Below, piece after piece: positions 20,585 through 50,064 of a DNA stretch of 64,000 nucleotides (positions are counted from its first letter, which is position 1; each line of letters starts with the position of its first letter). A program made the position numbers and the translations under genes. Origin of the DNA: Scolanthus callimorphus. Its lineage: Eukaryota > Cnidaria > Anthozoa > Actiniaria > Edwardsiidae. The stretch is taken from contig CM066919.1 of the NCBI GenBank assembly GCA_033964015.1, positions 26,804,204 to 26,868,203 of the forward strand, read 5' to 3'. Below the pieces are notes generated by a model that made no database searches, was not told where the DNA came from, and was given only the letters and a program-made list of their open reading frames with translations.

Positions 20585-21063
20585 GTAAGCAGGTATGCTA
20601 AGATCCTTAGAGTCAAATGCTGTCGAGAATTACTTGAAAGCAAGAAGGTTGACCAATACCTCGAGGTTTTATTTGTTATTCCTTCATGCTCAGAGATTCT
20701 TTGTCGAGTTCACTATCTAGCACGTAAAGTCTAAAGACGCGAAAAATTGGCAGCAACTTAGCGTTTATATCAGCACTTAACCGATAGTTTAAGTAGTAAC
20801 CGATATGGAAAGGTTTTAAGGTTTCTAATATATCCCTTGCAAGCAACTTTTTTTAGCAGGCGAGTACCGGCTACAAAACTTTTCGGTTTTCCACCTTGTT
20901 TGACCAGCAAACGAAGTCCTCGATAACAAACTACTAGTGAAACAGTAGGAAATACTTCGCAACAGACTCGATTTCTCTGCTAATGCTTGATTAAAGCAAC
21001 TATTCAAGCAGGTGAAGTGATTAACAGATCTTACCTTTTTGTTTTCGTTTGCCCTCTAGAAAA

Positions 21064-23940
21064 ATGCCCTTTAAAGTTTATGTCGGAAACTTGGAAGATA
21101 ACGGAGACAGAAACACTATATGGAAAGCTTTTGAGAAATATGGCAACATTGTTGATGTATGGGTAGCTCGCAACCCTCCAGGGTTTGCCTTTGTTGAGTT
21201 TGAGGATGAACGTGATGCAGAAGATGCTGTACAGGAGATGAATGGCAGGCGCCTTTGTAACATGAAAGTGAAGGTTGAGTTGTCACATGGCCAAAGGAGA
21301 CGGAGGGGAGGAGGGAGAGGAGGCCACAGTGACCGTAGATATGATGATCGTAGACGCTCACCCCCACCTAGGAGAAGGTAAGGAAAGTTGATTTTTTGTG
21401 TTTTTGGGCAGGGCTGCTAATTGAGTCTACGTGTTTCACCAGTTGACACATGGACAAGTTGACACATTTTTGGAAAGGTATAGCTATACAGAAGGGGGTA
21501 TTGTGCAGTCGCTCCAAAAATCTGTACTTGTCTCCTGAGAGACAGCTCCACATTCAGAGATGCCAACTCTCCCACTTTTTAGGCTCGACTCCTGCTCTCC
21601 CACCTTGGGTCCAATTCTCCTGCTTTTCATAGAAATACTGGAATTGTAAAGTGATTTCACAGTGCAGAGACATTTTGCAGGTCTTACAGTTGTTTTCAGA
21701 ATAATTTACTGCTCCGGGTTGCGAAGTTGGTTCCCAAATTCCCAACTAGGTTCCCAACCTCACAACTTTGGTTCCAAACTAAGTTCGTAATTTGCCAATT
21801 CAGAATATGGAATATTCTGCTAAAACCATTTTAATTTTGACAGACCACAGCCACAGAAGGCTGAACAGCTAACATTTATATTTTCTAAACAAAATTTCTA
21901 ACCATAGACGAGAAGTTACGAACTTAGTTTGGAACCAAGTTGCAAAACTTTGGAACCTAGTTGGGAATTTGGGAACCAACTTCACAACCCGTGGCAGTAA
22001 AGTATTCTGAAAACAACTCTAAACACCCCACCCCCCACATTTTGAAGGTCAGAAGCTGGCATCTCTGCCACATGCTCTTTAATTAGCCACTTTTCTACTT
22101 TTTCAGTTTTTTGCAGCTCTACTTAAAGTGCATATGAAACGAAATCAGTTTTTGGATATGTGGATAGATGATTATTAGACAAACACGCTGCCCAAGTTTG
22201 AGAAAGATTTTATAAATAGCTGTGACGCTATGTCTAGCTAATTAGCAAACTTGCAGTGCTTACTTCTTTGAAAACGATGTGTGTAAAAATGTAAAAACTT
22301 ATTTCGTTTCATATGCACTTTAAGGAAGTAGGACTACCTTTAAAAGCTACAATTAGTAGTGTAAATAAGTAAAAGAGAAAGCAGAAGTTGGCGTGATTAT
22401 TTGGACTGGAAGGGAAATTACATCACTCAGTGAAGCCAAACCACTCAATTATAGGGTTAAACATTGTTCTTCTAATTTTCAAAATTTGTTCTCTGTTTTA
22501 ATTTGATATATTAGGTATACTCCCATTTTGGAAGTGCTGGTTATGAGTGGGATTGCTTAGATCCTGAATGGTTGTCATTTACCAAACTACAAACCTCTGC
22601 AAGTCATCAATTCACATTAAAGCAGTATCTCTGCCTCACAAAAAGTGTGATCTTCCATTTCATATCTTCAACTTCCCACTTCGGAACTTCAAAACAACCA
22701 ATCTTCTGCTTTAAGATAGGGGCTGCCAGATGTTTTTGGTTCTTCAGTCATCCCAATGTTATAAAAAGGCCTCTTCTGCCCAGCAAGTCTTCACTCTGAG
22801 CAACAATTCAACATCACCATCCCTTAGAAACGTGCAAAAAAGCTTCAACAAGTCTTCACCCCAAAAGATCCAACAAGTCATCTCACCACCCTGCAATCAC
22901 ACTTCAAAATTATCACCTTGTCAACAAATCTTCCCAAAACAACAGCTCCAAAACTCCAAGTCTTCAGTTGAGGGCAAAAAATGTAAAGAAAAAGCACCTT
23001 CAGGTCTTAGCTTCATTCTTCATTCCTCAAAACTTATCAGCAAAATTTACAACTACAATCCTCCATCCCAAATCCTTTATACTTGAAGGTAGTGGTTCAT
23101 ATTATTTGAATTAATTAAAACTACTAAAATTAAGAAGGTAATTTTCATTTCCTAGGAAAACTGCTAAAAAAGTTAATCTACAGAAAATCAAACTCTTATC
23201 CCAAAATAACTTTGTTATACAAAGCTAGAGGATGTTCTTTGAATAATTGTTGGGAACTCTGTTCGGAAGAGGTTAAATTGTTGTAGATATACCCAAGTCA
23301 ATATTTAGGTTGTTTGAGAAATAGGCATATTAATGCATGTAAACACTATAATAACATTGAGGGGGAGTATTCTAGTTTTTACAGGGCTTCTGATGATGTG
23401 GGAATGCACAATTTGGCAAAATGTAATTCAACTATATAAATGTTTTATTAATTAAAAATGTGTTGCTTTTAGTATTATCATTAGTACTTTTTAAATAAGT
23501 TTTTGTAATTATTTCTGTAATTCAGCCATATTGGCTGCAAAAGTTATATTATTCTATCCATCTGTCCATGATTATTAAATAAGATTATGCTTTTCCTCCT
23601 AGTCCTCACACCCTGTCAGAAGCCTTGTTTCTAATGGGAATACCAAACCCAGTTTTGTCACCCCACAAACATTCATATTACCATGTTTTGCTTGTTGGTA
23701 GGTCAAGGTCAAGATCTCCCTATGGTTATCGTGAAAGGTCACCATTTGGGTAAGAATCAAGGCTTTAAAATTGTAAGAAAGCCCATTTGCTTGTTTTGGT
23801 CCCCTTTAGTTAAATTTCCTGTTCAAAAAATGCTGCTTTGAAGAACAATCCGGTTTGTTTCAAAGTATTTTTTAATTTCTAGACAACAACGATATGGTAG
23901 CAGAAGAAGTCGATCTCGCAGCCCTGGATACCGCAACTGA
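21064..23940 (+). CDS. SRSF3: SR splicing factor, SRSF3-like
   Basis: Three coding exons: 21064-21377, 23702-23749 and 23883-23940, giving about 139 aa. The protein has an N-terminal RRM with RNP2 (KVYVGNL) and RNP1 (GFAFVEFE), and the [20 protein letters not shown] segment typical of the SRSF3/SRSF7 group. A short Arg/Gly hinge and RS tail ([27 protein letters not shown]) follow. No zinc knuckle is seen, favouring SRSF3 over SRSF7. SR proteins of this type bind pre-mRNA in the nucleus and guide splice-site choice and mRNA export. The ATG at 21064 sits just after an acceptor (CCCTCTAG), implying a spliced 5' UTR. Retention of intron 1 meets a stop at once, because the donor reads AGG TAA. The 2.3-kb intron 1 holds a candidate poison exon and two MITEs. 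At 139 aa it is somewhat shorter than vertebrate SRSF3 (about 164 aa). Confidence 0.92.
21689..22018. mobile_element. 330-bp MITE in SR intron 1
   Basis: Inverted ends AGTTGTTTTCAGAATA and the long inner pair GAAGTTGGTTCCCAAATTCC / its inverse. It lies entirely within the SR gene intron. Confidence 0.8.
22137..22319. mobile_element. 183-bp MITE with TTAA duplication in SR intron 1
   Basis: Inverted ends AGTGCATATGAAACGAAAT are flanked by TTAA at 22133-22136 and 22320-22323. piggyBac/Kolobok-type target signature. No open frame. Confidence 0.88.
22515..23088 (+). promoter_or_regulatory. candidate poison cassette exon of the SR gene
   Basis: The block sits between an acceptor (TTTGATATATTAG) and a donor (ACTTGAAG|GTAGTG). 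Spliced after coding exon 1 it reads [15 protein letters not shown] and then a TAG at 22558-22560, so inclusion would truncate the protein inside the RS region and expose the mRNA to nonsense-mediated decay. The block is strikingly G-poor and C-rich, full of CTTCAAC, TCTTCA and CATC-type words, which resemble known SRSF3 recognition sequences. Vertebrate SRSF3 carries a stop-containing cassette exon of comparable size in the same part of the gene. This is inferred from sequence alone. Confidence 0.6.
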
Positions 23941-27948: not shown

Positions 27949-28068
27949 ATGTCGACTCCTTCGTCCTTCTATTGTCGAGATCTACCTGGAGATCTTATCG
28001 ACTACCGCTCAAGCGAATCAAAATTGCGTCTCGCTCGCTGCTTGCTGGATGGCACTGCAGTCCCCTTA

Positions 28069-28256
28069 AGTAATGGTCCATGCTTAGCGTGCGTATATCC
28101 AGTTCTGGAAGCACGCGGATAGTTGAGAGAGCACGAAGGTAGCGTAAGAGTCGCACGAGGCGTTAGCCGAGTGCGACTCTAGCTAGCTGAGTGCTCTCTC
28201 AACTATCCAAGTGCTTCCAGAACTGGATATACGCACAGCTAAGCATGGACCATTGC
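28069..28256. mobile_element. 188-bp foldback MITE in phytochelatin synthase exon
   Basis: Inverted arms AGTAATGGTCCATGCTTAGC ... inverse of GCTAAGCATGGACCATTGCT extend through GTATATCCAGTTCTGGAAGC. The central part is GAGTCGCAC/GTGCGACTC. Flanks TTA and TTT suggest a 3-bp duplication. Confidence 0.85.
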
Positions 28257-28288
28257 TTTTATAACATAGCCAACAGATTTTCGCATAG

Positions 28289-29095
28289 GTAAGTGAAAAG
28301 GCAGCTCCGAACACGAATAACAACGAAGCGTTCAAGCGAACACGGTAAAACTGAAATTGAAAACATTGCATTTTCACTCGTCAAAACAAAGTCAACTGGA
28401 ATGAATATAATAAAACTTTCATAAACAAAATGTCAAATTACAATTTAATTAAATAAACTTAAGCTTAAATAAGTTTTTCATGGGTTTTTGGAATAAAACA
28501 AGAGAAAGCAAAAGTTTTTTGTCTGGGCGAAACAGGTGCACAAAAACCAACAGCACCATAAAACCAAAACAACATTTTATTTAGACGTATAAACTTTTCG
28601 AAAATAAGCTACAGAAATGCTAATTTCCATAAAACTAACAAAATTGTTTAAATACCTCTTGTGTTTGTCCATTTAGTCCCTTCATATTGAATCGCTTGCA
28701 ATTTCCATTGAGATTTGAATTGAATTCATGTAGATTTGTGAATTTCACCGGCCGGCTTTTCACCCTGATGTTTGACACACAGCATTCAAATTTCCACTAA
28801 ATCCATGTAAATTAACAGCCTTGTGCATAACCCACAAATTGACATGCTCTCAATAGCTTGATGAACTCCATTTTAGACTTGTTAGCCATATTTTTAGTGC
28901 CAATAAGACACGAAAATATTCCTTCAGCGAACCAAATCAATCTTTCGGCGAGTTCAAACCGTGTTCCTTCTTCGGTTGCCCTTGACTACGTGCGTCCCGC
29001 CAAAACTTCTTCATAAAAGTTGACCAATCAGAGCGCGCGTTATATCGTAGCTATGTTATAATTTCTAACACTGTCTTCTTGCTTTAATTCTCAAG
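28289..29095. other. phytochelatin synthase intron
   Basis: Starts GTAAGTGAAA and ends TTTAATTCTCAAG. AT-rich and with no further exon that I can recognise. It includes ACCAATCAGAGCGCG near 29020, a motif shared with local repeats. Confidence 0.5.
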
Positions 29096-29904
29096 CCGAA
29101 CCTGCATATTGTGGTCTTTCAACGTTAGCTATTATTCTTAACGCTCTGAGAATCGACCCACAAAGAATCTGGAAGACTCCTTGGCGTTGGTTCACCGAAG
29201 ATCTTCTGGATTGCTGTCGACCTTTAGAGGTCGTGAAGAAAGTTGGGATCACAATGGAGGAGTTTCTGTGTCTCGCCAAATGTAACGGTGCTGCCTGCAC
29301 TATAACTAGGCCAGATGAGAGCGATGAGAGCTACGAGCTATTTAAAAAGGCTGTTATTTGTGTGTGTACCGGTGGGGCAAAAGCTCAAAGATCACTGTCG
29401 GAAGAAAGCAGCTGTAGGATAACCCAAAACTTGTGTTATCCACAGCAGAACGGACAGGGTAGTAAAGTCGACGAAGAAAACCCAAATGAGTTAATTGCCA
29501 TATCATATAGCAGAGCAGCACTGAAGCAAACAGGCAGTGGCCACTTTAGTCCCATTGCTGCTTATGACCAAGAAACTGATTCAGCACTTGTACTGGACAC
29601 TGCACGCTTCAAGTATCCACCTTACTGGGCCCCAATGAAGTCACTATTCAGTTCTTTGCTCCCCATAGATCCAACCACTGGCAAATGTCGAGGGTATTTT
29701 GTACTACGAGCAAGAAATGATGTGCAGGGAAAGAGGGTTTGTTGTTTGTGGCAAGAACTGCTGGCCAGTACCCCAAGCCATAATGACATGTTGCCGGAGC
29801 CACACCCCATGTATGATAAAAGCATTACTTGTTATAAAGATGTCTGTCAGGGAAAGGATAAGGCCTGTCCAGGGATGGATAAGTGTCATACTCTGGAAAT
29901 GTAA
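29096..29904 (+). CDS. PCS1: phytochelatin synthase catalytic-core exon
   Basis: Encodes EPAYCGLSTLAIILNALRID and TPWRWFTEDLLDCCRPLEVV, then KQTGSGHFSPIAAYDQ and LVLDTARFKYPPYW. These match the phytochelatin synthase core. The catalytic Cys (YCG, codon at 29110-29112), His (GHFSP, 29542-29544) and Asp (LDTARF, 29596-29598) are all present, and the His-Asp distance of 18 residues equals that of the plant enzyme. The Cys-His distance is about 38 residues longer because of a Glu/Ser-rich insert. The frame ends soon after the core with a Cys-rich tail (CYKDVCQGKDKACPGMDKC) and a TAA at 29902-29904. It lacks the long variable C-terminal half of plant enzymes. It has no in-frame ATG before the catalytic Cys, so the upstream exon is needed for activity. 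Confidence 0.85.
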
Positions 29905-30046
29905 CTCTTTTCACTATCAGATGACTATTAAGAATGAGGTCAGTGCCTTAATCTGCCATACACCTTTATCAAGTTAATATTGATCTATAATATCTAATAG
30001 TTATCAGAAAATGGAACCCATTATTCAATTCTACACATCTGTATTA

Positions 30047-30221
30047 TAGCCATCCTCAGTTACACGTGGTCGCCGGGAAAAAAGCTTGCAAGCGAAAACT
30101 CGTTTTTTGCCAAAGTGTCCATGGCAACGCACATGCTTTCGCTGCTCAGACAAGACAGAAAACGAGTTTTCGCTTGCAAGCTTTTTTTCCCAGCGACCGC
30201 GTGTAACTGAGAATGGCTGTA
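30047..30221. mobile_element. 175-bp nested MITE
   Basis: Inverted ends around AGCCATCCTCAGTTACACG and the inverse of CGTGTAACTGAGAATGGCT, continuing with AAAAAGCTTGCAAGCGAAAA. TA-type flanks suggest a mariner-like origin. Confidence 0.8.
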
Positions 30222-35647: not shown

Positions 35648-38600
35648 TCATGCAATTTTTAAACACGACGCGTTGAATCCATCTCCTTTGTACTGGGCCA
35701 CGAGTTCTAGGAGCTTATGCTTTTTTTGCATGCTCCAGGAGGATTCGAGTTCATATATCGTACACAAATTAAACAGCAGGCCATCATTGAGGTTACGCGG
35801 AGGGTTGGACCATATGGCAGTTTCGAGGACTTGTAAGGCCTGAGGAAAATAAACAGGTACAAAGAGTGTCATGCCCGTCTTTCAGACACTGATCCACGGG
35901 CACCCTGTGCTCGCTATTGGTCTTCAAGGGTCAGGGCCCTCGAGGATTTAGCGTGAAAGGTAAGGAAAAGGCCTGTAGACGTCTCAATTGCAATCTTTAT
36001 CCCAATCAATGCCATGTATATGTATCAGAGAGTGTCATAAAGCTATGTATGGGCACTGCTAATAGTTCTATGCGTCGCTAGCACAAATGTACGTCATTCC
36101 AGTCAAGCAAACAGACGGCAAGAGAAATATAGTAGCTTAGACTAATATAAACAAGATATACCTCTTTTAGATTGCCAAGAAATAACAGACAGACCGCTAC
36201 GTTATTGATGGCCTAAAAAGAAAACATGAATTAAATAAATTATCAGAAATTTCGAGAATAAGAATCGTCAGAAAAGTGCGCATACACAATTAAAATTGTT
36301 AGAAAACAAAGAACAGTTGTGTATGGTAATAGCTAAGTGTGCGTTGATTATTAATATGAACGCTTGGACAACTAATAAATTGCCATTCTCGTAAACAGAA
36401 CTCCCCGACTCGTTACCTCGCGGGGTCCCTTACTCGCTAAAATGTCAAACTTCGTTTGCTAGCCGACTTTTTGACCTTTACTATACAACAAATTTAGAAA
36501 AGAACAAAAATATAAATATCGTATACGCATGCGTCAGTAGCTCTTAACCAAGCCTTTCCCGCGAGGTCGTGACGAAACGGGGAGCTCTGGGTACGAGGAT
36601 GGGGAAAAAGAATCTCGAGAAAACCGTGCGCAAAGGGAATGAGCAATATACGCGCTGGTTAAAAACATAAAACACCTTAAACATTGGAAAAGAAAAGAAC
36701 AGTGCGGGTAGATAATTAGAGGACAGCAGATCGGTAAGACGTAGAACAAAAGAGCGAACCAAACTCACCACGGAATTGTCTGGGTCAAGCTTGGTCACAG
36801 CGACAAAATGCTTGTGCGCATCTTCGTATGATCCAGTAGCGAGAGACATGAATCCTCTAAAATAGCCAGAGAATCGCAATCAGATTATCTGAATTTACGT
36901 CCTCTACGAGACAAAGATGACCGTAATTTCTGATTATGAAGGGCACCCAAATAGCACGAGGACTTCCTTCTTAAACACACGAAATTTAACACGCTTGGAC
37001 CTGTTACATATAAAATGTAGATGTTCCTCCTCATTAAGTTGATAATTTTCAAGTCTCACTACCTGTTTGCTAGATTACTGCTGACAGAAGGTACATGTTG
37101 ATCAGTTCTTACTTGTTCAGGACCACTGTGCTTAATGTCTCTGGATCTCCGCTAGAATTCTCCTCCACTAGTTTGAAATAGCTCTCGGCTCGCTCTAAAT
37201 CACCAAGCTACGAGAAATAAATAGCAAAACAACACTAAATATATCCGTTGGCATAAAAACCGAAATACATAATCAGATCTTTTTCCCTTTGCTCTTCCTC
37301 ACCTGAAGGTAGATTCTTCCAATACCAGAGTTCAGAGCTGTAGACTTGGATGGGTCATGTTTTTTGATAGATTCGAAGACGGAAACAGCAAGATTGTAGT
37401 CCTACGTGAAAATGAAAAGCAAACACAGTTGAACTAGAGAGCTTTTTAAAAACATTCAATAACCTACTGAAGCTTCCCTCTGACCCTCTTTCACTGTGGC
37501 CGCCTGTAAAACATTGCTAATGTAAGAAGCATCTTGATTATCTTCGTACACCCCATCCCCCAATCCTTTCTTCCACACGCACACTGCCACGAAACTGAAA
37601 GGCTATACAGCAAAACCGTCACCATTTCCATTCACCAACCTTTCGCGTGCAAAGACACAAAATCAAGAGACAAAATGTCTTACTTTGACAGCCAAGAAGC
37701 AGTTCCCTACTGCGTACACCACTCTTAACGAGCGCTCCTTCCATAATCTTATGGCAGCTGTGAGAAAAGAGAATGATACGATGACAAGGACGAAGAACAA
37801 GAACAGCTACAACTCAGTGTCAAAACCTGCCAACAACGGCAGCACATAGATCATCCGTACACAGACAAGTATGAGTAGTCACTTCTGTCGCCTGTCTCTT
37901 GATTTACTAATTTGAGAGACTGAGTGAGCTTAACATGCGCGGTACATAACCCTAGCATGACGAACCTTGACGCTGTTCGTTAGTCTTTTCCGATTCTGAA
38001 CCATCTTCATCCAGCCCTTGTGACAGATGTCTCATTACTCGAGTACACATTCGCTGTAGTTCGTACAGTCGGTCTAAAGCTTCATTGGGTTTTCCGATGT
38101 GCTGGGGTAACTCAGCATGTAAGATACGCAACGAGAAGGGAACCATGCAGCCTTTGAAAAGAGAAAAAGAAAAATCGCCAATGCATAAAAGTAAATTCCA
38201 GCAATTCAAGGAAATGATACCATGTGATACTGCATCCCAACATGAACAAAGGGGCAATTGGTGTCGGGAGTTCAATGTGAGAAGCAGCAAAATAGAGTGA
38301 CCATGATGCTGAAGATGGCAATACAAGCCCTGAATAAACTTTGTTATCAAGCGGTGTCTAAGGCAATACAAGCCCTGAATAAACTTGGTTATCAAGCGGT
38401 GTCTAACCCTATGGTCATGGCAATACAAGCCCTGAATAAACTTTGTTATCAAGCGGTGTCTAACCCTATGGTCATGGCAATACAAGCCCTGAATAAACTT
38501 TGTTATCAAGCGGTGTCTAACCCTATGGTCATGGCAATACAAGCCCTGAATAAACTTGGTTATCAAGCGGTGTCTAACCCTATGGTCATGGCAATACAAG

Positions 38601-41600
38601 CCCTGAATAAACTTTGTTATCAAGCGGTGTCTAACCCTATGGTCATGGCAATACAAGCCCTGAATAAACTTTGTTATCAAGCGGTGTCTAACACTATGGT
38701 CATGGCAATACAAGCCCTGAATAAACTTTGTTATCAAGCGGTGTCTAACCCTATGGTCATGGCAATACAAGCCCTGAATAAACTTTGTTATCAAGCGGTG
38801 TCTAACCCTATGGTCATGACAATACAAGCCCTGAATAAACTTTGTTATCAAGCGGTGTCTAACACTATGGTCATGGCAATACAAGCCCTGAATAAACTTT
38901 GTTATCAAGCGGTGTCTAACCCTATGGTCATGACAATACAAGCCCTGAATAAACTTTGTTATCAAGCGGTGTCTAACCCTATGGTCATGGCAATACAAGC
39001 CCTGAATAAACTTTGTTATCAAGCGGTGTCTAACCCTATGGTCATGGCAATACAAGCCCTGAATAAACTTGGTTATCAAGCGGTGTCTAACCCTATGGTC
39101 ATGGCAATACAAGCCCTGAATAAACGTTGTTATCAAGCGGTGTCTAACCCTATGGTCATGGCAATACAAGCCCTGAATAAACTTTGTTATCAAGCGGTGT
39201 CTAACACTTAGACAGTGGACGCCAGCTAGCAGGGCAGTGTGACTAGATTTCAGTTTTAGTCCCCAAAGTGGCGACGCGTTGTAAGCATACTACAAATTTG
39301 GTCGGAGAATTGCCGATTTTGATCGAACAATGTCCGATGACCGGCAGTAATTTCCAGCTCTGGACTGTGAAACGTAACACGGTACGGACAAGGCATTGCT
39401 CGCATGATCGTGACGACTTCAGCCAATCACATCCCGCGAAATTTATGATCAACCAATCAAAAGACTTAGACACGACACGGCACAATATCGTTACGGCGTG
39501 GCCACGGCACTGAAAGCACTGTAACTTTTTCGCAGTCACACGAAATCTGCTCCATCTATATATGGTGACAGAAACAGTGATGCAGATGATAAAGATGGTC
39601 AATGTGATGATAATAAAGGTCATCCTAATAATAAAACTGAATTCTAATGTGTTATAAATTAATGTTGATGATGGCATATATGCCATTATTATATAGAGAG
39701 AGGATATTACACGGTGGCTTGAAGATATTAGTTAGTTATTTTCGAGTGGCAAGACTATGAACAATATTTTACGAATGAGCGCAGCGAATGAATAAAATTT
39801 TATTTTTGAGAAGAGAAATAAAACTGATATCTTCAAGCCACCGTGTCATTTTCTTTTTATTATATAGACAAACCAGAAAAAAATATTCCAAATTGATTTC
39901 CAAGCACTTTTGTTTTGACCGATATCCTCACTAGTGAGGATATGGAACATTAATATACGACTTTTAATATACAAAATTGAGTGCAGATATGGAGCCGTAT
40001 TACACGGCTGAAAACTGTATTACACTGTAAGAAACCGGTTACGAACCGGTTTCTCGCGCGCACTTGAATGGCTTCCCGATCGTGTGCTAGTGAAATCACG
40101 TAAGTTTTCTAGTGCATTTGGAAAAGAAAAGGAATATATTTGTATAATAAATAACTCATTAGATGTTTTTTCATGTAATACTGGCGGACATTTTACTCGT
40201 TGCTCGCATTTTTCCTCACCCCTGCGGGGCTCGGAAAGATACGTCCGCAACTCGTAAAATATCCGCCCGTATTACATGAAAAAACATCTAATAAGATATA
40301 TATATATGTCACTCAGGTCCCGAAAGTAGCTTCTTATGAGATCTACGAGTGGCGTATTTCCCAGTAAAACACTCGTGTCTATATAATAAATATATATATA
40401 TGTACCTTTCCTCCCAGGGTATGTTTCGGGATAATATTCATAGTACAGGTCTGGTTGGTCAAAGTTCCTGAAAGCATCTAGCTCTGCTTCTGCTGTGCTG
40501 TACATCTGAAGCTTGAATAGCAAAGTGACTCTGAAAAACCAGATCTGGAAAACAGCCACCAAAGAAAAGCTGTAGTCACTAAGATTGCTTATTTACAAGG
40601 GGACTTTTGATACTAAAAGTTGTCTTTACAGCAATATTTACAATTGTTAAAATACAACGTTTCGACGCCGCCATGATGCCATTATCAAGTGGAATAAAGA
40701 TTAATTATGCAGAGTGTCCTGAGTTGCTAAATTAGCATATTGCACAGTGATTGAGTTGTACAAACAATTTTGCATGAATTACATCGGCCTGCACATTGAG
40801 CGTGGGCCGGATGGTGCAGATAGGCAAACATTTATTTCAAAAGACAACCAAATTTGCCTCTGCACTTAGCGAGCATGCCAAAATATGGGGGCAGGTCATC
40901 AGGGATAATGCTGTTTTGATTATTGCTTATAAAACAAGATGCTACCTGCAGTGTCTTGTGAGTGTGTAGAGCTCTCTGGCCCTGTTGACCAACACCCTGG
41001 CCATGTGCTGTCAGGAACCTTGCTGTGAACTCTAGCCCCGCTCTCCAACACTGGCCAGCCTGGGAAACATTAATATGCTAATGTTTGGATTAAAGCCTGA
41101 AGACAAGTGTCATCTCTAGCATGGAATGGCATGACTAGATGTTTTGATGGTGACGAGTGAGTTGTAAGATGTACGGTAGTGCCTTGCCAAGCCATGGAAG
41201 ATTTGCAGCACCAAAATGACCAAGTGCTGCATTTGGGACTAAAAAGTCAAAAGTGCCAGCCTGAATAAGTGCCACACCAAATCAAGATAACTTTTTAACA
41301 CAAAGACAAGCAAAAATTAGAATGAGATTTTAATATTTCTTAGAACTTAACCATGCCAAGTGTTTAATAGCCCCCCCTCCCCCCAAATAAGTGCTATGCT
41401 TGAATAAGCATCTCATCTATAGCACAAAACTAAGTGGGCTGTGGCACTTATTCAAGTAAATAGTGCATACTGCTTTGCACTCAAGTGATCTCTAGCTGTT
41501 ACAGGCTTCAACTCCCTTATCCTTTTCAGGTGTAGATTTTGCTACTTGTCTTACCAGAAGTTCTCTAAGGCCAGATTCATTGAGAGGCACACTGTCAACC

Positions 41601-44698: not shown

Positions 44699-47600
44699 CT
44701 TCTGGTCTTGGGCACTGCCATCCAAACACATTATCCATTATCTGGGGTGTGCGGTACAGCCAGTTCTCAAACTCCTGGAAAGTGGTAGAAAAGGAATAGC
44801 AAATACATAGAGATTATTACATGGCAAGAACTTGATTTTGTTTTTATTCACAATTTCTTTTTCATATACCCTGGTATGATACGAAAAACAAGTGAATAAA
44901 AATGATATCAAGTTCTTGCCATGTCATAATTTGTTTATTATATACTCTGAGTTAGATAAAAAAGCAAAAAATAAAGACAAATTGCATTTTATTCTTGCCG
45001 TGAAGTGATATCGTATCACTTCACTGAAATGATTTTTATTCACTGTTTATCACATGGATATCTGGTAACAGTATATAATAAAGTAAAATATAATTTTCTT
45101 AACAAGCATAGTTTTGTTTATAAATCAAAATCCAAACACCATTAGCAGTGTACAATAATTTTTTTTAAATATAAATGTTAAGAATTGTTTCACCCTGAAC
45201 TCATTCCTGGGTCAACCTATTTAATATACAATTTGCAAATTATGTTTTATTAATAATATAATATAATACATACCCCAAGGTACTGCTTTTTACCTTAGCT
45301 GATAACTTGCCACTCTTGGATATATCGCAAGTATGGAATGCTTCATCAACAAGCCTAGTACCAATAATTATTACAAGATTAATATCAATTTAGGTATAAG
45401 GAAGTACAAGTATATGGTAAATAAACAATCAATAGCACAATAAAACAAAACAATTATGAGCAGGTGTTATTTAGTTTCAAAAAAGCTGGAGCATATGAAA
45501 ATTTAGCACCATTATCAGCCCCATCAGCAATGCCTACACCAACAAAACAGTTCATTTGTACATAAACCATCAGAACATTAACCCCAGGGGGATGGGTTAC
45601 CTCAAGGGGAGGAGGGACTGTGATTACATTTTCAGGCTATGCATCTTTGAGCAAGATGTTTCATTAGGTTGTGTTGTGGAGGTATTGGTGGTAATTTTTA
45701 ACACTAGAGTTTCAAGTTCAAGTTTAATATTTCGCCACATACAATTTACATTATAAAAACAATACAAATATCAGTAAAGAAACATGAAGAAATATATATG
45801 GCGAGGAGAAACATATAAAAAATCACAAGGCTTATACGGGATGGTTCTCCTCATAATTACATATAATAAATAACGGATTAAAATCAGAAAGGTAGTCATT
45901 ACGGATTCATTAATAACTGAAAAAGTTTACAAAAACTTGATTTTAAGGTTTATGTAAAAAAAAAGATAAATCACTCACGTTTACAAACGAACACACAAAC
46001 ACAGAATGGGAAACTAATAATTCTCAAGGAGAAATGTGTAAATCTTATTTTGTTGGTTATTATACACTACTTCATTGCTTAATGCCATATGAGTCCCTTT
46101 CTTATGAAATGAGGCATAAAATAAGCAGATTTAGGGGGGAAAGGCCAAGGGGGCCACGGCCCCCCTTTCTCAGGAGATTTTCCCATACATTTACTGCTGA
46201 AAGAAATTTGCAAATTTTTGTCCCACATTTTCACTATCCAGCCCCCCTTTCTGAAATTCCTGGATCTGTCACTGAAAAGGGCCATTCATATTAAAAAAAG
46301 GCAACTATAAAGCAGCCATGAAGTTTATAGGGGAGTTTGCAATTGTAGACAGCCATTAGCTCCTGCTGGGGTAGCTATAGTAGTTAGCTATAGTAGTTAT
46401 AGGGCAAAATAATTCAATTTTTAAAAGGAAGAAGCCACTATAAGTTTATCCCTTGGGTGCAGCCTTCCTATGCCCCCACTGGGGCCAAACAGCTTAGGGA
46501 CGGACCATTTGATATTTGATGGGGGGAGTGGCTAATTTTTTTATGGCTCGATATTTTTTTCGCGTCCAGTTTTCCTGCTCGAATTTTTTTCCCTAGAACG
46601 TGACTGTGCTCCATTTTTTTCCTGGATATTTCTTTTAATTTTTTGGTTTGAGATGTCACTTAAATTATTGCGCCATCAAAACGACAATTGATCACTTCAA
46701 TAAATTACTACTTTTCAGCTCTCCTGTTATGTTAGCATTTTGCGAAATTGGTATGCTTATAGCATCCGAATCAGCTCGGGTTTTTGGTCAGCGGATTTTG
46801 GATTTTCGCTACTATGAAGATGTTCAGATTCAGGATTCTATTTCTTATCTAAGTGCTCTTTGGTGTATCAGTACAGAGCCTTGTAATGGAATTTGTTAAA
46901 AATCTGTGGCACTCGTCGGTAGATCTCCTACTGCTACTAAAAACACTGCAGTTTTCCTATTTCCAGAGGTGAAAGTTGAATTTCAAAATAGTTAATAGAG
47001 ACTTCTAAGATTGCACGAGATCGAGTCGAGGCATCTCTAATAATGCTTTCATTTTGCTCCTAACTAAACCATAGGCGGCGGAGGACCATAAAAAGTGGGG
47101 GTGCTCATTAGTAAGGATGTATGGGAACACAGGCTTACCATTCTGGGGGTGTGTGTAATGTGACTTCTTCTGTGTCATACATCTGCTCTTGGGGAGTTTG
47201 TAATGTGACTCCCCCTGTGTCATACATCGGCTCTTGGGGAGTTTGTAATGTGACTCCCTCTGTATTGATCAACGATCGGCTCACAAGTTGATAGTTAAAA
47301 GCATCTCGTATTATCATCTCTTGAAACAGAAAAGTTCTATAATAAAGGTTATAGTAAACGATAATTGTATTGTGTTTGTCCTCATATCGAAAACAGGGGG
47401 AAATATAAAGGTTTTCGGGTAGTTTATGAGAGTTTTTGGGGGGTGGGTAGCGAGGGGAGAGAGGAGAGAAGGAGTAAAGGCCAGCAGCTCTCACGCAGAA
47501 CCAAATCACCATCACGTCGATCAAGCGCTCCAAATTCTTATTCACAGAAAATCTCACGAAACACTTACAACAGCTCGATCGAGTGATCATTGATCTATGT

Positions 47601-50064
47601 CCCAGCCGAGTTTCAGGCTCGTAAATAAATTATGTGTACCCGAAAAGTGCACATTTTTCGGTCACCTCCGCCAAAACTCCACGCCGGCAAACGATAGAGG
47701 AACGCCGTGAAGACCCTTGGAATGTAGCGTCAATCAACGCATAGACCCTTGGAATGTAGCGTCAATCAACGCATGGCTGGTCGGGCTGGTCACGTCACGC
47801 TGCACTTCCGCTACAAAACGGAAGAGAATGCGCCAGCCAATCAACGAGCTGGGGAAGAGATACCCGAACAAAGGGGAAAGATACATGGGGACGCCATCGT
47901 CGAAGCGATCTCTAACGGGTTTTAACTGTAGCCAGTCACCCACAAGGATTACCTGTATTCCACCAAAAGGCCTCCGATCGTTTCGCACCTTGGAGCAAAT
48001 GGCGTGAAGTAACTCCACGAGGCGAGCACTTCCCATGGAACATTCGTCCCATAATACACATTTCAATTTCAAGATTCTTTTCTCCACAGCTACATTCTCG
48101 CAGGCGTTCTTGACGATCGCATCGAACGGTCCTTGCGCGGTGCGGATCCCGAAGTAACTGTGGACAGTGACTGGACGGTGAAACAAATTCTCGTCACCTT
48201 TAAACACCTCACATGCGATTCCCGTGGAACAGACGACTTGGACGTTCTTCCCCTTATTTTTACTGATACTAGAGACAACTATCGATTTTCCAGTGCCTGC
48301 TTCGCCGTAAATTGCAAAATTATGTCCAGAATTCGCAAGATGCACGCAGTCTTGTTGTTCGCTAGTCAATTTTATAGACATTTGCTCGCGAATCACATGT
48401 TACAACTGAAACGCACGTTTCGCGGGTTTCTAATATAAACAAACAGGGCAAAGTGTATGTTTTGACAGCCAGCTCGTTGATTGGCTGGCGCATTCTCTTC
48501 CGTTTTGTAGCGGAAGTGCAGCGTGACGTGACCAGCCCGACCAGCCATGCGTTGATTGACGCTACATTCCAAGGGTCTATGCGTTGATTGACGCTACATT
48601 CCAAGGGTCTTCACGGCGTTCCTCTATCGTTTGCCGGCGTGGAGTTTTGGCGGAGGTGACCGAAAAATGTGCACTTTTCGGGTACACATAATTTATTTAC
48701 GAGCCTGAAACTCGGCTGGGACATAGATCAATGATCACTCGATCGAGCTGTTGTAAGTGTTTCGTGAGATTTTCTGTGAATAAGAATTTGGAGCGCTTGA
48801 TCGACGTGATGGTGATTTGGTTCTGCGTGAGAGCTGCTGGCCTTTACTCCTTCTCTCCTCTCTCCCCTCGCTACCCACCCCCCAAAAACTCTCATAAACT
48901 ACCCGAAAACCTTTATATTTCCCCCTGTTTTCGATATGAGGACAAACACAATACAATTATCGTTTACTATAACCTTTATTATAGAACTTTTCTGTTTCAA
49001 GAGATGATAATACGAGATGCTTTTAACTATCAACTTGTGAGCCGATCGTTGATCAATACAGAGGGAGTCACATTACAAACTCCCCAAGAGCCGATGTATG
49101 ACACAGGGGGAGTCACATTACAAACTCCCCAAGAGCAGATGTATGACACAGAAGAAGTCACATTACACACACCCCCAGAATGGTAAGCCTGTGGTAAAAT
49201 GTATGAAAATTTGACAAAAAGTGGGGGTGCTCGAGCACCCCTGCCCCCCAGGGTCCGCCGCCTATGAAAACAAAGGGTCCACGAATTTACGAACGAGGAC
49301 TGACCAACTGAGTAGTTTGCTTTATGTTTCTCGATGTGCGTGAAGCATGGCACGATTTTGAAATCAAGTACTGTATCCCCATCGAGTATCAAATGGTCTT
49401 CCCTTAAGTAACTATGATTGAGTGGAAACATACTTTGTGACAGTCTCTATCAGTTTATCAGTGCCGTCACTGTCTTGTTCAGTTGTATTCTCTTCAATGT
49501 TATCCAGGATTTTCTCAGCTGACTCGACAGAGCTGAGGAGGACAGCGGTCAGTTCATCCTTACTCACACCATCATCCTCATCCTAGAACATGTCAAAAAT
49601 CTTTATTAAAGACGACTTCACTAACAGAAAACATACTAACAGGCTTATGACTTACCAGATCAAAGATTTTAAAAAGTAGTCTACATTTGTCCCTGACTGA
49701 TCCGTGAAGACAAAGAGCTATTCCTCCAATGAATTCCTCCAGCTCTATAGTTCCAGTCTAGGAAAAGCATGAAATGATGTTTTAACAATGTTAGTGCCAT
49801 AATATTAAAAGTAAAGACACATCAAGGAAACAAAAGTACCTCGGTCCTGTCAAATGCATGGAAGAGCCTTTCAGCTATAAACCCTGGCAATCGAAAGCGT
49901 TCGGCGAAATCTCGTCTATTTACAAGCGAAATTTCAACATGGCGACTTCCATCTTCCCTTCGCGTTGAGATCTCGTTGAAAACAGCCTCGATGTTTGTAA
50001 GTTCTATAGTGCTTAGCTTGCCTACAGCCTTCTCATAGCGTTCTCTGGACTTTCCCTGACCCAT
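44699..50064 (-). CDS. EF-hand calcium-binding protein, myristoylation-type N-terminus
   Basis: Exons, in transcript order: 50064-49840, 49757-49656, 49582-49434, 45354-45294, 44774-44699, giving 204 codons plus one base. The start MGQGKSRERY fits the N-myristoylation pattern (Gly2, Ser6). EF loops: DRTETGTIELEE (canonical), DLDEDDGVSKDE (Asp instead of Gly at loop position 6, so divergent) and DISKSGKLSAKE (canonical, across an exon border). The last exon ends WLYRTPQIMDNVFGWQ, then PRPEG. If transcription runs on without splicing, it stops within eight codons (LLLYKNI). If spliced at AAG|GTTTGC, the phase joins exactly to the TRAPPC12 first exon. The domain order recalls EF-hand N-termini of TLDc/MEAK7-like proteins, but no TLDc domain is present. 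Specific family not assigned. Confidence 0.8.
44817..44930. mobile_element. 114-bp inverted-repeat element
   Basis: Left TTACATGGCAAGAACTTGAT and right ATCAAGTTCTTGCCATGTCA are inverses. It lies in the EF-hand gene intron. Confidence 0.75.
45355..46496. other. EF-hand gene intron, 3' portion
   Basis: AT-rich with short repeat remnants, including GGGGGCCACGGCCCCCC near 46149, a small palindrome. No coding content recognised. Confidence 0.5.
47135..47590 (-). CDS. unrecognised 151-aa frame, left arm copy
   Basis: Identical to the protein in the right arm (48731-49186). Begins MITRSSCCKCFVRFSVNKNL and ends with three 15-residue repeats of the type GVTLQTPQEQMYDT. No known family. The repeats come from a 45-bp DNA repeat. 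It may be only an open frame in the arm. Confidence 0.3.
   Translation of the reverse strand: MITRSSCCKCFVRFSVNKNLERLIDVMVIWFCVRAAGLYSFSPLSPRYPPPKNSHKLPENLYISPCFRYEDKHNTIIVYYNLYYRTFLFQEMIIRDAFNYQLVSRSLINTEGVTLQTPQEPMYDTGGVTLQTPQEQMYDTEEVTLHTPPEW
47853..48381 (-). pseudogene. PIF1-like DNA helicase, N-terminal fragment
   Basis: Starts MSIKLTSEQQDCVHLANSGH, followed by Walker A (YGEAGTGKS), Walker B-type DECSM and GGIQVILVGDWLQLKPV (SF1 motif III). These belong to PIF1/RecD-like helicases, which unwind DNA 5' to 3'. Only motifs I to III are present. The frame runs into the left inverted arm at about 47852 and motifs IV to VI are missing. The whole coding part fills the spacer of a foldback. 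It could be a gene fragment captured by a transposon, or the 5' end of a longer element-borne helicase as in Helitron relatives. Confidence 0.75.
48731..49186 (+). CDS. unrecognised 151-aa frame, right arm copy
   Basis: Exact counterpart of the left-arm frame, pointing outward. With the helicase fragment on the opposite strand, the segment 48470-48730 would be a shared divergent promoter (CCAAT, CGGAAGTG). Function unknown. Confidence 0.3.
   Translation: MITRSSCCKCFVRFSVNKNLERLIDVMVIWFCVRAAGLYSFSPLSPRYPPPKNSHKLPENLYISPCFRYEDKHNTIIVYYNLYYRTFLFQEMIIRDAFNYQLVSRSLINTEGVTLQTPQEPMYDTGGVTLQTPQEQMYDTEEVTLHTPPEW

What the first reader, a model, noticed from the sequence alone, without database searches (positions are those of the whole stretch)
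27949..29904. Phytochelatin synthase gene with its first coding exon split by a foldback MITE
The sequence encodes a recognisable phytochelatin synthase start (SFYCRDLP ... LLDGTAVPL), then a 188-bp inverted-repeat element carrying an in-frame stop. FYNIANRFSH and a good donor follow, and after an intron comes the core exon with the catalytic Cys, His and Asp. Taking out the insertion plus one 3-bp duplicate gives the same residue spacing as plant enzymes, so the insertion is well defined. The visible splice junction to the core exon is also out of phase by 2 nt. An animal metal-detoxification gene may be freshly inactivated here, or the insertion is spliced or polymorphic.
Basis: partly seen in the sequence, partly recalled or inferred. 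Interest (0 to 1): 0.78.

Follow-up and report, generated by a model that had tools for sequence, protein, structure and literature searches.

The report
Metal-detox gene broken by jumping DNA
In a sea-anemone-like animal, the gene for a metal-detoxifying enzyme (phytochelatin synthase) is cut in two by one young copy of a repeated mobile element about 1,000 letters long, so the assembled version very probably cannot make the normal enzyme, although the rest of the gene still looks well preserved.

Summary
The phytochelatin synthase (PCS) gene and its interruption are real, but the anatomy given was wrong. Homologues read GTAVPFLSLSSCFNTQAEPAYCGL. The window reads GTAVP (to 28065), then FLTLSSCFNSQAEPAYCGL from 29062. 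"FYNIANRFSH", the "good donor" and the "intron" are mobile-element DNA: one 996-bp element (28066-29061) interrupts one open frame.

The foldback is one end of that element, not a separate MITE: 20 of 20 inspected hairpin copies (the window's included) are joined to the same partner sequence. The genome gave 463 first-look candidates, 40 scored. The window copy differs from the majority of 18 copies at one base and two gap columns, so it is young. No target-site duplication was seen; one other copy's empty site and the PCS frame fix the same two ends.

Of 68 in-frame GT-AG combinations none keeps FLTLSSC. The gene matches 77 of 78 highly conserved columns, so breakage looks recent, or the insertion is polymorphic. 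No second copy of this gene was found. One triad-complete paralogue (C4) remains; two others (C3) lack the catalytic His.

The element's target preference (A-N-6 bp-N-T, no duplication) resembles tyrosine-recombinase sites; its enzyme was not identified.

The parts
27949..28065 (+). PCS 5' coding part, codons 1-39, MSTPSSFYCRDLPGDLIDYRSSESKLRLARCLLDGTAVP
   Evidence: ATG at 27949, reading frame; aligns with the N-termini of homologues
28066..29061 (+). One 996-bp non-autonomous mobile element, 5'-TTAAGT...TTATAA-3', no target-site duplication seen
   Evidence: multicopy, shared ends; empty site of copy L023; longest stop-to-stop frame 65 codons
28068..28258 (+). Foldback (hairpin) end of the element; carries the first in-frame stop, TAG at 28120
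   Evidence: inverted repeat and fold; 20 of 20 inspected copies joined to the rest of the element; stop
29022..29061 (+). Right end of the element, ...CGTAGCTATGTTATAA; its last 16 bp occur 143 times exactly in the genome, in the places read also beside other interiors
   Evidence: no stable hairpin here
29059..29061 (+). TAA in frame with and directly upstream of the second coding part; bars any acceptor inside the element from leading into it in frame
29062..29904 (+). PCS 3' coding part, 280 codons plus stop: FLTLSSCFNSQAEPAYCGL...; Gln codon 29092, Cys 29110, His 29542, Asp 29596; Cys-containing tail

Best explanation
The region is an anthozoan phytochelatin synthase gene, one open frame at this point, interrupted recently by one 996-bp non-autonomous mobile element that lies between codon 39 (Pro) and the following Phe codon without a target-site duplication. 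Shown: the two coding halves, the element's ends, its multicopy nature, the absence of duplication in the copies read, the stops it brings, and the lack of any GT-AG splice that would give back the full protein. Inferred: loss of enzyme function from this allele; recency; that a partner element elsewhere supplies the recombinase or transposase. Not known: whether the insertion is fixed or is one allele.
For: Homologues carry FLSLSSCFNTQ (or close variants) exactly where the window resumes at 29062. The sequence 28258-29061 lies at 39 other scored places (40 scored of 463 first-look candidates); 16 of the 40, the window included, are 97-100% identical over all 804 bases. In 20 of 20 hairpin copies inspected (window included; 40 were scored) the hairpin is joined to this sequence. 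The empty site of copy L023 at a 94% identical locus gives the ends TTAAGT...TTATAA and no duplication; the same ends leave the PCS frame unbroken (CCC, then TTT CTA). The three other PCS genes found in the assembly (PF05023, 5 candidates, all 5 scored) run through this point in one open frame, so no intron is expected here. The first AG after 29061 is 29094-29095; of 68 in-frame GT-AG combinations (52 donors, 80 acceptors, introns of 40 or more bases) 0 keep FLTLSSC and 4 keep EPAYC. The window gene differs at 1 of 78 columns that are at least 93% conserved among 52 homologues; 32 of those 52 have 0 or 1 such change themselves. The window copy has 1 substitution and 2 gap columns against the majority of 18 copies, and is 99.7% identical, gaps set aside, to L009 and L015.
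Against: No RNA or population reads were available. Two in-frame splices to the acceptor 29095 keep most of the protein: donor 28076 (311 aa...AVPLSN-AEPAYC) and donor 28070 (309 aa...AVPLT-EPAYC); that these products are inactive is inferred. The L023 empty site is a 94% identical locus, not a proven allele, and its junction was aligned by eye. The second haplotype of the animal was not seen. The PCS site lacks the two bases that most other insertion sites share (C, not A, at -2; C, not T, at +8).
Confidence: 0.93

Rival explanations
1. The insertion is a presence/absence polymorphism: the assembled haplotype is broken, but an intact allele exists in the same animal or in the population. Compatible with the main explanation, but it changes its meaning (a segregating null allele, not a lost gene).
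For: The element copy is very young and the rest of the gene shows no decay. Two pairs of element copies, each on a small contig and a chromosome-sized one, share flanks (L010/L011, L013/L021), which suggests residual haplotigs or duplications in this assembly.
Against: No second copy of the gene among the scored DNA matches (40 of 1128 candidates) or the PF05023 matches, and no uninterrupted 22-base site with up to 2 mismatches. A haplotype-purged assembly would not show one.
Confidence: 0.45
2. One reading: a 188-bp MITE with a 3-bp duplication splits the first exon, followed by FYNIANRFSH, a donor and a true intron before the core exon.
For: The foldback is real, TTA stands on its left and TTTTA on its right, and a consensus-like donor (CATAG|GTAAGT, intron start 28289) is present.
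Against: FYNIANRFSH does not fit the homologues; FLTLSSCFNSQ does and lies at 29062. The sequence with FYNIANRFSH and the donor is repeated in the genome and joined to the hairpin in 20 of 20 copies inspected. The three other PCS genes found have no intron here.
Confidence: 0.02
3. The element works as an intron: it is spliced out with a donor near its left end (28070 or 28076) and the acceptor made by the coding sequence (29095), giving a shortened but useful PCS.
For: These combinations are in frame and keep the Cys, His and Asp (309 and 311 aa). The acceptor TTGCTTTAATTCTCAAG is pyrimidine-rich.
Against: They remove FLTLSSCFNSQ, in which L, S, S, C, N and Q are nearly invariant in the 12-row alignment, including a Gln present in all 52 homologues compared, presumably the oxyanion-hole residue (recalled from the Nostoc PCS structure). 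Both donors look weak by eye; no splice-site scoring was run.
Confidence: 0.04
4. Assembly artefact: the element was placed in the gene by a misjoin between repeats.
For: The element is a high-identity repeat, the usual cause of misjoins.
Against: Both halves of one gene flank it in order, orientation and frame with no codon missing relative to the homologues; a misjoin would be very unlikely to do this.
Confidence: 0.01

Closest known systems
Anthozoan phytochelatin synthase (glutathione gamma-glutamylcysteinyltransferase), e.g. Nematostella vectensis P0001
   Same: Pfam PF05023; Cys-His-Asp; same N-terminus and a Cys-containing tail; 65% identity over 96% of the 269-residue core used as query; the tree puts it in a group with Nematostella P0001 and Exaiptasia P0032 (14 rows, 81/90, drawn open)
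   Different: Coding sequence interrupted by 996 bp; first stop after codon 57
MITEs / foldback elements with terminal inverted repeats
   Same: Short, without a long open frame, many copies, large terminal foldback
   Different: No target-site duplication (0 of 28 at 3 bp or more); the two termini (TTAAGTAATGG and TTATAACATAGC) are not clear inverted repeats of each other; the foldback sits at one end only
Animal Cryptons (CryptonA) and their non-autonomous derivatives (PMC3212892, passages read)
   Same: No terminal repeats found in animal Cryptons; CryptonA reported from cnidarians, Nematostella listed; the paper says tyrosine recombinases typically recognise two inverted repeats of 11-13 bp separated by 6-8 bp, and the target here shows a dyad A-N-6 bp-N-T
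   Different: No tyrosine recombinase gene was linked to the family (the search did not complete); a 190-bp hairpin end is not described in the passages read; only one base per arm is strongly preferred here
Helitrons / Helentrons
   Same: No target-site duplication; a right end shared with other interiors
   Different: No stable hairpin at the right end (z 0.11); no fixed A^T or T^T host dinucleotide (those rules are recalled)
Spy transposons (no duplication; named in a passage of PMC10045372, and in the listing; AAA^TTT target recalled)
   Same: Insertion without duplication
   Different: AAA^TTT at 0 of 28 copies

Membership tests
Phytochelatin synthase (PF05023) | Match to the Pfam model above its cut-off | tested here: met
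   213.5 bits against a cut-off of 24.9 for the second part; the first part alone scores 12.2 bits, below cut-off
Phytochelatin synthase (PF05023) | Catalytic Cys-His-Asp triad | tested here: met
   C, H and D at the aligned columns; codons 29110, 29542, 29596
Phytochelatin synthase (PF05023) | One uninterrupted reading frame, or one that splicing can join | tested here: not met
   TAG at 28120, TAA at 29059; 0 of 68 in-frame GT-AG combinations keep FLTLSSC
MITE / cut-and-paste DNA transposon | Target-site duplication of fixed length | tested here: not met
   0 of 28 distinct copies with canonical ends match at 3 bp or more; 1-bp (7) and 2-bp (4) matches equal the shuffled means (6.8 and 4.0); other boundary offsets tried on 18 copies gave only the element's own conserved bases; none at the L023 empty site
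MITE / cut-and-paste DNA transposon | Terminal inverted repeats | tested here: inconclusive
   The right end (TTATAACATAGC as reverse complement) recurs just inside the hairpin at 28259-28270, not at the outer left end (outer ends)
Crypton / tyrosine-recombinase element | Tyrosine recombinase encoded by an autonomous partner with the same ends | not tested
   Search of the assembly with PF12012 was sent 10 times and never answered
Crypton / tyrosine-recombinase element | Integration without target-site duplication at a site with inverted arms around a 6-8 bp spacer | tested here: inconclusive
   A at -2 in 23 of 28 and T at +8 in 24 of 28; T at +8 in 33 of 37 further right ends. Only one base of each arm is strong, and the PCS site itself has C at both
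Helitron | Short hairpin near the 3' end and fixed host dinucleotide (recalled) | tested here: not met
   Right-end fold z 0.11; the large hairpin is at the other end; host bases at the junction vary

The most novel reading that the evidence does not exclude
The element belongs to an undescribed group of hairpin-ended, non-autonomous animal elements that integrate by a tyrosine-recombinase-like reaction: a dyad target A-N-(6 bp)-N-T in which the element's own 6 bp (TTAAGT) stays at the left junction and the target's 6 bp at the right, leaving no duplication. It is young enough to be segregating a null PCS allele in a wild anthozoan population.
Probability: 0.28. Interest if true: 0.65.

Novelty: new member of a known kind. 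Interest (0 to 1): 0.42.

Why it matters
How far animals rely on phytochelatin synthase is poorly known. PMC3838358 (2013; passages read) says little was known about whether the genes are functional in animals; it reports that a C. elegans knockout is hypersensitive to cadmium and that arsenic raises phytochelatins in earthworms, and that arthropods and craniates appear to have lost the gene. A naturally interrupted but otherwise undecayed copy of an anthozoan PCS, with only one other triad-complete paralogue found in the genome, is a natural test of its role in metal tolerance. The element itself, young, numerous and inserted without duplication, gives presence/absence markers and a puzzle about its integration chemistry.

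Tried and rejected
Rejected: the 188-bp foldback as a MITE with TTA duplication (20 of 20 inspected hairpin copies are joined to the same partner). Rejected: FYNIANRFSH as coding. Set aside: my own first idea of a hairpin nested in an older element (notebook), since every inspected copy shares the junction; it may hold for a distant ancestor. Rejected: rescue of the full protein by canonical splicing. Rejected: a Helitron-like right-end hairpin. Not settled: the element's class; PF12012 in the assembly did not complete (10 calls, listed below). Not settled: a second empty site, from copies L012 and L026. Led nowhere: prokaryote genome scan for PCS relatives (2 bacterial loci); species identity (nearest named proteins are from Nematostella: 65% for the window gene; 60% for the C4 paralogue). 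Solved structures by sequence: 5 distinct sequences, all Alr0975; no structure was predicted.

Rows dropped: of 40 element copies read, L024 and L025 and L058, L060, L069 and L071 had no clear junction or end and were left out, giving 34; 32 with distinct flanks; 28 with canonical ends. In one search I used 52 homologues of at least 235 aa, taken from 55 chosen among the 120 listed (583 found); P0018 and P0037 were taken out, leaving 54 rows with the four genes of this genome. The 40 right ends were taken from the first 100 places listed of 143; 37 had distinct flanks. They are not fully independent: L097 and L118 have near-identical flanks, L082 belongs to the tandem-array sequence, and L086 and L091 appear to be ends of copies of the window's own family. 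This corrects my notebook, which called all 37 'other families'.

Full report
Where the window lies. The window is G000:C9:26804204-26868203 of a 597-Mb, 302-contig assembly. The best match for its PCS among 583 proteins found is from the sea anemone Nematostella vectensis (65% identity), and the tree places it beside Nematostella P0001 in a group that also holds Exaiptasia P0032 (that group of 14 rows is drawn open, 81/90, and the smallest starred set holding the gene has 23 rows). The organism is therefore an anthozoan, probably a sea anemone (inference); the species was not identified.

The gene. Homologues share ...GTAVPFLSLSSCFNTQAEPAYCGL... with small variations. In the window the 5' part (27949-28065) ends at GTAVP; the 3' part resumes at 29062 with FLTLSSCFNSQAEPAYCGL and runs open for 280 codons. 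The three other PCS genes found in the assembly (C4, and two on C3; 5 candidates, all scored) run through this point in one open frame, so these genes have no intron there.

The insertion. Everything from 28066 to 29061 (996 bp) is one repeat. The 804 bases 28258-29061 gave 463 first-look candidates, 40 scored; 16 of the 40, the window included, are 97-100% identical over the full length. The hairpin part (28069-28260) gave 756 candidates, 40 places scored (each also matches in reverse, being a palindrome); 20 were inspected, the window's included, and all 20 are joined to the same partner sequence. The element starts TTAAGTAATGG and ends GCTATGTTATAA in most copies (34 of 40 copies read could be delimited; 28 of 32 with distinct flanks have TTAAGT and TTATAA). 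Its longest stop-to-stop frame is 65 codons, so it is non-autonomous.

How it inserted. Copy L023 has a related empty locus on C6 (94% identity over the joined flanks): CAAACGAT|ACCTGG against CAAACAAT[TTAAGT...TTATAA]ACCTAG (aligned by eye). The element is thus flanked by host DNA without duplication, and with the same ends the PCS flanks meet at CCC|TTT CTA in frame. Across 28 distinct copies no duplication of 3 bp or more is seen (0 of 28), and shorter matches equal the shuffled expectation (7 against 6.8 at 1 bp, 4 against 4.0 at 2 bp). The host base at -2 is A in 23 of 28 and at +8 is T in 24 of 28. In 37 further right ends with distinct flanks, picked only by their 16-bp terminus, T stands at +8 in 33; at least two of these 37 appear to belong to the window's own family and a few are related to each other. 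Such a dyad with a 6-bp spacer, all of it on one side of the insert, is what a tyrosine recombinase with a 6-bp overlap could leave (the 6-8 bp spacing is from passages of PMC3212892). This is inference: the recombinase search did not complete, only one base per arm is strong, and the PCS site itself has C at both positions.

Effect on the protein. Reading from the ATG runs 18 codons into the element and stops at 28120. Because TAA (29059-29061) stands in frame directly before TTT (29062), and the first AG after it is 29094-29095, no canonical acceptor can restore FLTLSSCFNSQ. GT donors from 27960 to 29061 (52) and AG acceptors from 28069 to 29399 (80) were paired: 68 pairs keep an open frame, none keeps FLTLSSC, 4 keep EPAYC. 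The longest products that keep EPAYC (311 and 309 aa) lack the stretch with the Gln that is present in all 52 homologues compared; that it forms the oxyanion hole is recalled from work on the Nostoc enzyme. Re-initiation in the second part would start after the catalytic Cys (its first Met is in GITMEEF). Loss of function of this allele is therefore very likely, though untested.

Recency. The window copy differs from the majority (70% or more of the other 17) at 1 base and 2 gap columns and is 99.7% identical, gaps set aside, to L009 and L015. The gene differs from the consensus at 1 of 78 columns that are at least 93% conserved in 52 homologues; 32 of the 52 have 0 or 1 such change themselves. 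Both point to a recent event, or to a polymorphism. No numerical age is given because no rate was measured. No other copy of the gene was found: in the coding part the best other DNA matches are the C3 paralogues at 70-72% (40 of 1128 candidates scored, most of them a repeat just downstream of the gene), and the uninterrupted 22-base site is absent with up to 2 mismatches.

What is left in the genome. C4 (L004) is an intact frame of 264 codons stop to stop with Q, C, H and D at the four catalytic columns; it groups with Nematostella P0046 (100/93). It differs at 9 of the 78 conserved columns, so its activity is not assured. The two C3 genes (about 99% identical to each other) have Thr in place of the catalytic His, which all 52 homologues keep. 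For comparison, among those 52 the Cys is Ser in 2 and the Asp is Glu in 3, so loss of a catalytic residue is not unique to C3. The C3 pair differ by 3 silent and 5 amino-acid changes before a frameshift near codon 265; they look catalytically dead. If the window's insertion is fixed, C4 would be the only triad-complete PCS found in this animal.

Novelty. Inactivation of a gene by a mobile element is a known kind of event. Searches for 'phytochelatin synthase' with coral (23 papers), Cnidaria (7), Nematostella (3), and transposable element + pseudogene + animals (2) showed no title or abstract opening on this case; only listings were seen, apart from passages of PMC3838358. The element's integration pattern may be new but is not established.

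Noticed in passing
L005 and L006 (G000:C3:1193397-1194131 and C3:385256-385990, minus strand): Two nearly identical PCS paralogues about 0.8 Mb apart with open frames but Thr in place of the catalytic His (present in 52 of 52 homologues compared); probably catalytically dead.
   Followed up: partly
28 element copies and 37 other right ends, G000: Target preference A at -2 and T at +8 with no target-site duplication: a dyad with a 6-bp spacer on one side of the insert, unlike usual DDE transposons.
   Followed up: partly
L076 696-1391 (G000:C1 near 13694000): Tandem array of a 109-bp unit (6.3 copies) that contains the element's right end; the same right end (38-50 bp) also caps sequences in L077, L078/L079 and L080 that show no other match to the element in the 3.3-3.5 kb read.
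   Followed up: partly
window 47128-47852 and 48469-49193: A perfect 725-bp inverted repeat (100% identical); its left arm overlaps the end of a PIF1-like helicase fragment at 47737-48399 on the minus strand, most of which lies between the arms. Looks like a very recent inverted duplication, a long-armed foldback element, or an assembly effect.
   Followed up: no
window 21025-21378 and 36547-36879: Probable host exons nearby: an RRM-domain exon on the plus strand (SR-splicing-factor-like by recall) and a weak TPR match, below Pfam's cut-off, on the minus strand.
   Followed up: no
window 37955-39289: Long open frames on both strands made of short repeated units (HRLITKFIQGLYCHD... and AIQALNKLCYQAVS...), a minisatellite-like array; not examined.
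   Followed up: no
window about 29950-30047: About 85-100 bp just downstream of the PCS stop codon are a common dispersed repeat (dozens of 83-93% matches among the 40 candidates scored of 1128), so a second repeat lies against the gene's 3' end.
   Followed up: no
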